From contig DATNQD010000084.1 of assembly GCA_036702865.1 (NCBI GenBank), forward strand, positions 1-64,000: a stretch of 64,000 nt of DNA. The letters run 5' to 3'. The translations under genes were made by a program, and so were the position numbers. Origin of the DNA: Trichocoleus sp. GTDB lineage: Bacteria; Cyanobacteriota; Cyanobacteriia; Elainellales; Elainellaceae. The notes under the pieces were generated by a model, which was not told the origin of the DNA, ran no database searches, and saw nothing but the letters and a program-made list of their open reading frames with translations. How positions within the stretch are numbered: position 1 is the stretch's first letter; each line of letters begins with the position of its first letter. Of this stretch, positions 30,267-31,735 are shown piece after piece.

Positions 30267-31091
30267 ATGCGGCCGCAAAAAATTTCCTCCCTCAAAAGCA
30301 CCATTTCTATTGCCACTGCTCTAATTGGAGCTGTAGCGCTTCTGGGCTTACCGGCAAAAGCACAAACCAATTCTAACGGGGGACAGTCTCCTAATATGTC
30401 TCCCAATACAATTACTCAGCCGAGCAATACTGCGCCGAATACAACCCCAGGTAGCACAACGCCGGGTACCATTACCCCAGGCAACACAATACCGGGTAAC
30501 ACAACACCGGGTAATGCAGCTCCAACGAATCTGCCATCAGCGCCCACAACTAGCGCCCCCGCGGCTCCAGGCATTGCTCCAGCACCCAATAGCCCAGCAG
30601 CAAATACGAATACTCCAGCCCCCACTCCCACAGCAGCAACAAACGATCGCTATCTCAGCGAGTTGCTTGGGCAGGCAGCAGGGACAGGTTCGTTCAGTAT
30701 TCTTGCTCGTGCCGTAGAAGCAGCAGGAGTAACCAATGCACTGCGAGACACAGGTGAGAAGTATACGATTTTTGCCCCAACTGATGAGGCATTTCAAGCG
30801 TTACCTCCTGACACACTAGAGCGACTTTTACGCCCTGAAAATCGGGAATTACTGCGGGAAGTCTTGGCTTACCATGTGGTTCCAGGTGCAGTGACTTCTA
30901 AAGACCTCCGTTCAGGTTTAGTTGATACGCTAGGCGGTGGTGTAGCAGTGAGTGTTGCGCCCGATCGCATTGTTGTCAATGATGCCAGTATCATTCAGCC
31001 CGATATTCAGGCAGCAAATGGCGTAATTCATGTTGTGAACCGTGTTCTAATGCCACAGCAATTGCGTCAGCGGCTTGCCTCACTGCGATAA
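30267..31091 (+). CDS. Secreted fasciclin (FAS1) domain protein
   Basis: An N-terminal signal peptide (about residues 1-33, ending LLGLPAKAQ) is followed by a low-complexity Thr/Pro/Gly/Asn linker with repeated TTPG and TPGN units (about 35-122). A single FAS1 domain follows (about 125-274) with NALRDTGEKYTIFAPTDEAF and the closing NGVIHVVNRVLMP. FAS1 domains mediate adhesion outside the cell or in the envelope. The linker probably spans the cell wall. AAGGA lies about 12 bases before the ATG. A terminator-like hairpin follows. Confidence 0.93.
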   Translation: MRPQKISSLKSTISIATALIGAVALLGLPAKAQTNSNGGQSPNMSPNTITQPSNTAPNTTPGSTTPGTITPGNTIPGNTTPGNAAPTNLPSAPTTSAPAAPGIAPAPNSPAANTNTPAPTPTAATNDRYLSELLGQAAGTGSFSILARAVEAAGVTNALRDTGEKYTIFAPTDEAFQALPPDTLERLLRPENRELLREVLAYHVVPGAVTSKDLRSGLVDTLGGGVAVSVAPDRIVVNDASIIQPDIQAANGVIHVVNRVLMPQQLRQRLASLR

Positions 31092-31335: not shown

Positions 31336-31470
31336 GCCAACAGTTTTTATTCTGATCTTCACGCCTGCCATCGACTTCCCGTTCTATTGAGATGGGGTAA
31401 AATTTCGATCGTTTTGTTTGTCGGCTTCTCCTAATTTCACAACTCAAACTCTTCATTGGAGCATTCAGCA

Positions 31471-31620
31471 ATGCAACGTCCAACCGACCAACCTCACTAC
31501 TTTCTGCGCTATCTTTCTTTGGCTCCTGTTTTAGCAGTTCTATCGGTTTCGGTCGCATTTTCAGCCTTTATTATCTTTAATTCTTTCTTCCCAGATCTGC
31601 TATTTCACCCAATGCCTTAG
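31471..31620 (+). CDS. PsaJ-like photosystem I small subunit, stand-alone and divergent
   Basis: Forty-nine residues: MQRPTDQPHYFLRYLSLAPV, one membrane helix (about 17-36), then FNSFFPDLLFHPMP. The YLS-APV start, the single helix and the FFPDLLFHP end are the PsaJ (subunit IX) pattern. PsaJ binds chlorophyll at the edge of photosystem I next to PsaF. The C-terminal His46 that ligates chlorophyll is kept, but the family's conserved Glu in IEFNRF is replaced: here it reads IIFNSF (Ile35). psaJ normally follows psaF; no psaF is here. GGAG lies about ten bases before the ATG. This may be a second, specialised PsaJ or the main one moved. The family call is firm, the role is not. Confidence 0.72.
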   Translation: MQRPTDQPHYFLRYLSLAPVLAVLSVSVAFSAFIIFNSFFPDLLFHPMP

Positions 31621-31710
31621 TCAAAAAGGTAATTAACTCAATTCATACCTGTTTGGATCAACCTCAAATTTACCCTGGCATTCAATTTTGTTCTTAGCTT
31701 GCGAAAGAGA

Positions 31711-31735
31711 ACCCGATTGAGTCAGGGTATTTTTT
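31711..31735 (+). terminator. Terminator-like hairpin after the psaJ-like gene
   Basis: ACCC and GGGT (with GA/TC extending the stem past a bulge) enclose a short loop and are followed by ATTTTTT. It is placed well to end transcription of the psaJ-like gene before the convergent cobD gene. Confidence 0.5.

What the first reader, a model, noticed from the sequence alone, without database searches (positions are those of the whole stretch)
31471..31620. A lone, divergent PsaJ-like gene missing the family's conserved Glu
Seen: a 49-residue frame with YLSLAPV, one helix and FFPDLLFHP, plus a ribosome site and a possible terminator. It lies between a fasciclin gene and cobD, with no psaF. Known: PsaJ usually follows psaF and reads ILIEFNRFFPD. 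Here the segment is IIFNSFFPD (Ile35 for Glu, Ser38 for Arg), while the chlorophyll-ligating His is kept. A side-chain that may help bind a chlorophyll at the PsaF/PsaJ edge is therefore lost. This suggests a second PsaJ for special conditions, changing energy uptake into photosystem I.
Basis: partly seen in the sequence, partly recalled or inferred. Interest (0 to 1): 0.62.

Follow-up and report, generated by a model that had tools for sequence, protein, structure and literature searches.

The report
Unnamed alternative photosystem I subunit, PsaJ3
The small gene encodes a second version of the photosystem I subunit PsaJ that has lost two of its three chlorophyll-holding residues; it belongs to a conserved, so far unnamed family in many cyanobacteria and tends to appear and disappear together with an unexplained third version of the core protein PsaB, which suggests an alternative form of photosystem I.

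Summary
Window 31471-31620 (+) is a real 49-aa PsaJ gene (Pfam PsaJ, 46 bits), lone, with a ribosome site and a strong terminator hairpin. The same genome carries a normal psaF-psaJ pair elsewhere. The gene is not a one-off: it belongs to a well-supported clade, called PsaJ3 here, found as a lone second psaJ in 73 of 217 genomes of one Nostocales family and in 8 of 36 genomes of the window's order. In Chroococcidiopsis-type genomes the same clade is the ordinary psaF-psaJ-psaL copy. His39 is kept. It is not the far-red PsaJ2. The main new result is that PsaJ3 travels with PsaB3, a third PsaB paralog of unknown role: 45 genomes have both, 28 only J, 10 only B, 134 neither (p 7e-18). The link survives within-genus shuffling and tree-based pairs, and far-red clusters show none. 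The window's genome has PsaB3. Best reading: PsaJ3 replaces PsaJ1 in a subset of photosystem I, preferentially with PsaB3, closing part of the antenna entry at the PsaF/PsaJ edge. No expression or structural data were available.

The parts
31471..31620 (+). psaJ3: 49-aa lone PsaJ paralog; Ala29 and Ile35 at the Thr22 and Glu28 chlorophyll-ligand positions, His46 at His39
31458..31461 (+). probable Shine-Dalgarno GGAG, 9 bases before the ATG
   Evidence: sequence
31671..31735 (+). probable intrinsic terminator: hairpin 31671-31729, then T6
   Evidence: dG -23.8, z -3.7
30267..31091 (+). upstream neighbour: fasciclin-domain protein; not part of the unit
   Evidence: PF02469, 123 bits
31768..32754 (-). 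downstream neighbour: cobD/cbiB, convergent; not part of the unit
   Evidence: PF03186, 332 bits

Best explanation
The gene encodes PsaJ3, a conserved alternative PsaJ. It is inserted next to the genome's only PsaF at the outer edge of photosystem I in place of PsaJ1, in a fraction of the complexes and preferentially in those that also carry the alternative core subunit PsaB3. Without Thr22 and Glu28 it should not hold two of the three PsaJ chlorophylls, while His39 can still hold the third. The PsaF/PsaJ edge, a place where IsiA antenna pigments touch the core, would then take in less energy or fit a different neighbour. Shown here: a conserved gene under purifying selection, clade membership, loss of both ligand residues, one psaF per genome, and linked gain and loss with PsaB3. 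Inferred: expression, incorporation, loss of the pigments, and physical partnership with PsaB3.
For: PsaJ family match. A canonical psaF-psaJ lies elsewhere in the genome and there is only one psaF. The clade splits from all other PsaJ with SH-aLRT 99; 0 of its 71 rows has Thr22 or Glu28 and 64 of its 69 Ala29 rows keep His39. pN/pS is about 0.2. Thr22, Glu28 and His39 are the published ligands of the three PsaJ chlorophylls (PMC7002129). IsiA carotenoids lie 4.6-5.8 A from two PsaJ chlorophylls (PMC7214436). The window's genome has PsaB3 with the diagnostic Gln insertion beside FX. PsaJ3-PsaB3 co-occurrence: OR 21.5, p 7e-18; within-genus shuffling 45 against 28.5 +/- 2.4; 20 independent tree pairs, PsaB3 going the same way in 9.5 and the other way in 0.1, p 0.004; robust to genome size, no such link with far-red clusters.
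Against: 28 of 73 PsaJ3 genomes in the Nostocales family lack the PsaB3 signature and 10 PsaB3 genomes lack PsaJ3, so the partnership is not obligatory. The two genes are never neighbours in the genomes looked at. In Chroococcidiopsis-type genomes a PsaJ3-type protein works without PsaB3. Chlorophyll can be held by water or a backbone group, so ligand loss does not prove pigment loss. No transcript, protein or structure was seen.
Confidence: 0.6

Rival explanations
1. PsaJ3 is a general-purpose second PsaJ that swaps with PsaJ1 in any photosystem I complex; its co-occurrence with PsaB3 reflects a shared lifestyle (for example terrestrial, desiccation-prone habitats) rather than one complex.
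For: 28 PsaJ3 genomes lack PsaB3 and Chroococcidiopsis-type genomes use the clade as their main PsaJ without PsaB3. The genes are unlinked.
Against: Habitat would be expected to link PsaJ3 with other accessory genes too, yet far-red clusters show no link, and changes go together within genera and on the tree.
Confidence: 0.27
2. PsaJ3 is a condition-specific subunit (far-red, low light, low iron or high light).
For: Loss of antenna-facing ligands resembles far-red PsaJ2, which binds no chlorophyll.
Against: No far-red cluster in this genome (one psaF, no psaA2). It lacks the PsaJ2 insertion and lies outside the PsaJ2 clade. Upstream regions show no enrichment of HLR1 or Fur-like sites. PsaB3 is described as constitutive (PMC10694217).
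Confidence: 0.1
3. A decaying duplicate without function.
For: It is short, lone, and scores below the NCBIfam equivalog cut-off.
Against: pN/pS about 0.2, invariant residues across orders, intact ribosome site and terminator, repeated retention.
Confidence: 0.03

Closest known systems
PsaJ1, the canonical photosystem I subunit IX (PF01701; T. elongatus PDB 1JB0 chain J)
   Same: Single hydrophobic helix, YLSxAPV start, conserved Asn, PDLLFHP lumenal end with the His39 ligand.
   Different: Lone gene; Thr22 to Ala and Glu28 to Ile/Val; longer polar N-terminus; separate clade.
PsaJ2 of the far-red light (FaRLiP) cluster
   Same: A second PsaJ that has lost chlorophyll ligands.
   Different: PsaJ2 lies in the far-red gene cluster with its own psaF2, has the insertion with Tyr40, and displaces His39; none of this holds here.
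Chain J of PDB 7qco and the psaF-linked PsaJ of Chroococcidiopsis-type genomes
   Same: Also lacks Glu28 (LIVFNYLYPD); shows that a Glu-less PsaJ can sit in a purified photosystem I.
   Different: Keeps Thr22, and its near-identical genomic relative (L088) falls outside the PsaJ3 clade in the tree; other Chroococcidiopsis-type genomes have true PsaJ3-clade proteins in the psaF-psaJ-psaL unit. That 7qco is the Chroococcidiopsis TS-821 tetramer is from memory.
PsaB3 (third PsaB paralog, Gisriel et al. 2023, PMC10694217)
   Same: Lone accessory photosystem I gene with the same taxonomic spread (Nostocales, Leptolyngbyales); co-gained and co-lost with PsaJ3.
   Different: A core reaction-centre protein; no PsaJ partner is mentioned in the passages of that paper read here.

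Membership tests
PsaJ (PF01701) | Score over the family cut-off along the whole domain | tested here: met
   46.3 bits against 22.4, profile positions 2-37 of 37
PsaJ (PF01701) | NCBIfam equivalog PRK02733 cut-off | tested here: not met
   44.4 bits against 69: a divergent paralog, not a standard equivalog
PsaJ (PF01701) | Chlorophyll ligands Thr22, Glu28, His39 (usual but not universal: other natural Glu-less PsaJ exist) | tested here: not met
   Ala29, Ile35, His46: one of three kept
PsaJ (PF01701) | Sits beside PsaF in photosystem I | not testable with these tools
   Needs biochemistry; the genome's one psaF is elsewhere
FaRLiP PsaJ2 | Insertion before the terminal His with the Tyr that binds chlorophyll f | tested here: not met
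   FFPDLLFHP has no insertion; PsaJ2 copies read FFPGLQYGTYFH
FaRLiP PsaJ2 | Within the far-red cluster with psaF2, psaA2, psaB2 | tested here: not met
   Lone; genome has one psaF, one PsaA and two PsaB, the second being PsaB3
PsaJ3 clade (named here) | Branches inside the clade of lone Glu-less PsaJ | tested here: met
   SH-aLRT 99 split, 71 rows, from only 49 columns
PsaJ3 clade (named here) | Ala at the Thr22 position and a hydrophobic residue at the Glu28 position | tested here: met
   A-I-S-H signature; 69 distinct sequences share A-[IVLF]

The most novel reading that the evidence does not exclude
PsaB3 and PsaJ3 together define a third kind of photosystem I, besides the visible-light and far-red kinds: a complex with an altered FX/phylloquinone surrounding and a partly closed PsaF/PsaJ antenna edge, kept by many filamentous cyanobacteria next to normal photosystem I.
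Probability: 0.5. Interest if true: 0.75.

Novelty: new variant of a known kind. Interest (0 to 1): 0.57.

Why it matters
PsaB3 has been known since about 2011 and its role is stated to be unresolved (PMC10694217). A second subunit that is gained and lost with it turns a lone oddity into a candidate two-part module and gives a direct test: purify PsaB3-complexes and look for PsaJ3 and for missing chlorophylls at the PsaF/PsaJ edge. It also means that structures and proteomes of these cyanobacteria should be searched with both PsaJ sequences, since a 49-residue protein is easily missed.

Tried and rejected
Far-red PsaJ2: rejected on insertion, clade and genome content. A second PsaL as a third partner: rejected, extra PsaL copies are common in the order whether or not PsaJ3 is present. 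Counting three PsaA/PsaB hits as PsaB3: replaced by a PsaB3-specific DNA signature after two genomes proved to have a tandem ordinary PsaB. Regulatory sites: no enrichment of HLR1 or Fur-like sites; an NtcA-like GTAN8TAC excess lies mostly among near relatives and is absent from the window gene. Shared upstream element of psaB3 and psaJ3: none seen. The two-genera tree alone was too small (p 0.125), so it was enlarged. Possible PsaB fragments in G011 and G015 could not be classified. Structure prediction was not run: one helix says little. Papers naming PsaJ3 or a second psaJ: none in the held library.

Full report
Observation. It is a member of the PsaJ family (Pfam 46.3 bits, cut-off 22.4) but falls short of the NCBIfam equivalog cut-off (44.4 against 69), so it is a divergent paralog. 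It has a GGAG nine bases before the ATG, and the downstream hairpin at 31671-31729 with a following T6 is much stronger than shuffles (z -3.7). Neighbours are a fasciclin-domain gene and convergent cobD.

Same genome. A Pfam PsaJ search of the whole assembly finds two copies above the cut-off: this one and a canonical one on contig C42. The canonical copy lies 70 bases behind the genome's only psaF. The genome holds one PsaA and two PsaB, hence no far-red photosystem I set. PsaJ3, if used, must therefore pair with the ordinary PsaF.

A clade, not an oddity. In 36 genomes of the order there are four kinds of PsaJ: canonical, far-red PsaJ2, this kind (8 genomes), and a fourth ending in FVPDRLFVP. 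Searches with an alignment of this kind bring in 65 loci from named genomes, most of them of this kind and mostly Nostocales, with some Chroococcidiopsis-type and Leptolyngbyaceae genomes; a copy is present in 73 of 217 genomes of one Nostocales family (after leaving out one low-scoring hit). A tree of 147 distinct PsaJ splits this clade (71 rows) from all others with SH-aLRT 99, though only 49 columns are available and most inner forks are weak. The core of the protein evolves with pN/pS about 0.2.

Gene context. In eight loci, from Aliterella, Chlorogloea, Chroococcus, Gloeocapsa, Chroococcidiopsidaceae MAGs and two Scytonema/Tolypothrix strains, the gene stands next to psaF and/or psaL: it is their ordinary psaJ (psaF and psaL were recognised there from the sequences). 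In G342, a Chroococcidiopsis-type genome, it is the only psaJ found, between psaF and psaL. In most Nostocales and in the window's order it is a lone extra gene with varying neighbours. So the Glu-less protein can evidently serve as a normal PsaJ.

What the substitutions mean. The far-red photosystem I paper names Thr22, Glu28 and His39 of T. elongatus PsaJ as the coordinating residues of the three PsaJ chlorophylls (PMC7002129). In this clade no row has Thr22 or Glu28; the positions hold Ala and Ile/Val/Leu/Phe (Ser in two rows at the first). His39 is kept in 64 of the 69 Ala29 rows. In the PSI-IsiA structure, IsiA carotenoids approach two PsaJ chlorophylls at 4.6 and 5.8 A and may pass energy to the core (PMC7214436). 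Losing two PsaJ chlorophylls would reduce that entry point. This is inference: ligand loss does not prove pigment loss. The best solved-structure match, 7qco chain J, also lacks the Glu.

The PsaB3 link. The second PsaB of the window's genome carries CQTSAWEQ with an inserted Gln where PsaB1 has CDISAWD. That matches the published description of PsaB3, whose role is stated to be unresolved and which is reported as constitutively expressed and as entering photosystem I tetramers in L. ohadii (PMC10694217). A DNA signature for this site finds PsaB3 in 55 of 217 genomes of the Nostocales family, with no hit of the reversed control pattern. PsaJ3 and PsaB3: both 45, J only 28, B only 10, neither 134; odds ratio 21.5, p 7e-18. 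Shuffling within genera gives 28.5 +/- 2.4 against 45 observed. On a psaA-psaB1 tree of 100 genomes PsaJ3 changes state at least 23 times and PsaB3 25 times. Of 20 independent pairs that differ in PsaJ3, PsaB3 goes the same way in 9.5, the other way in 0.1 and does not differ in 10.4 (median p 0.004, range 0.0002-0.125). Genome size does not explain it and far-red-type genomes show no such link (p 0.5). In the window's order the counts are 4, 4, 3, 25 (p 0.03).

PsaB3-specific sites. Between 7 PsaB3 and 14 PsaB1 sequences the non-overlapping positions are mainly at the FX loop (577-588), plus 314, 542, 563 and 714. Position 542 is two residues from Lys544, which the far-red evolution paper places at chlorophyll B30 near PsaF and PsaJ. 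This is suggestive only.

Verdict. A real, conserved, unnamed paralog of PsaJ. The most useful addition is the PsaB3 association, which makes the function of both testable.

Noticed in passing
L048, L049, L050, L051, L052 (order-level genomes G019-G022): A further PsaJ kind ending in LSNFIYFVPDRLFVP or LSYFVYFVPDRLFFP, without Glu28 or the terminal His, starred as its own branch in the PsaJ tree; in G019 it is the only PsaJ found.
   Followed up: partly
L355 and L356 (genomes G490, G492): A tandem second ordinary PsaB directly behind psaA-psaB, without the PsaB3 signature.
   Followed up: no
Nostocales psaJ3 upstream regions, e.g. L090 at -160, L096 at -187, L112 at -156, L129 at -132: A recurring element GTTAGARG about 130-200 bases before psaJ3 in some 20 Nostocales loci; not found upstream of psaB3 or of the window gene.
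   Followed up: partly
L057, L058, L059 (genomes G015, G007, G004): Directly upstream of psaJ3 lie one or two related genes for about 150-166 aa membrane proteins with a shared pattern (HNxxHxLxG ... GN); not classified.
   Followed up: no
L070 (genome G323): Two psaJ genes close together, one canonical and one without Glu28 and the terminal His.
   Followed up: no
G000:C63:78941-79372 and G000:C59:281930-282364 (own genome, outside the window): The window's genome has two psaL genes at separate places; two psaL copies are common in the order.
   Followed up: partly
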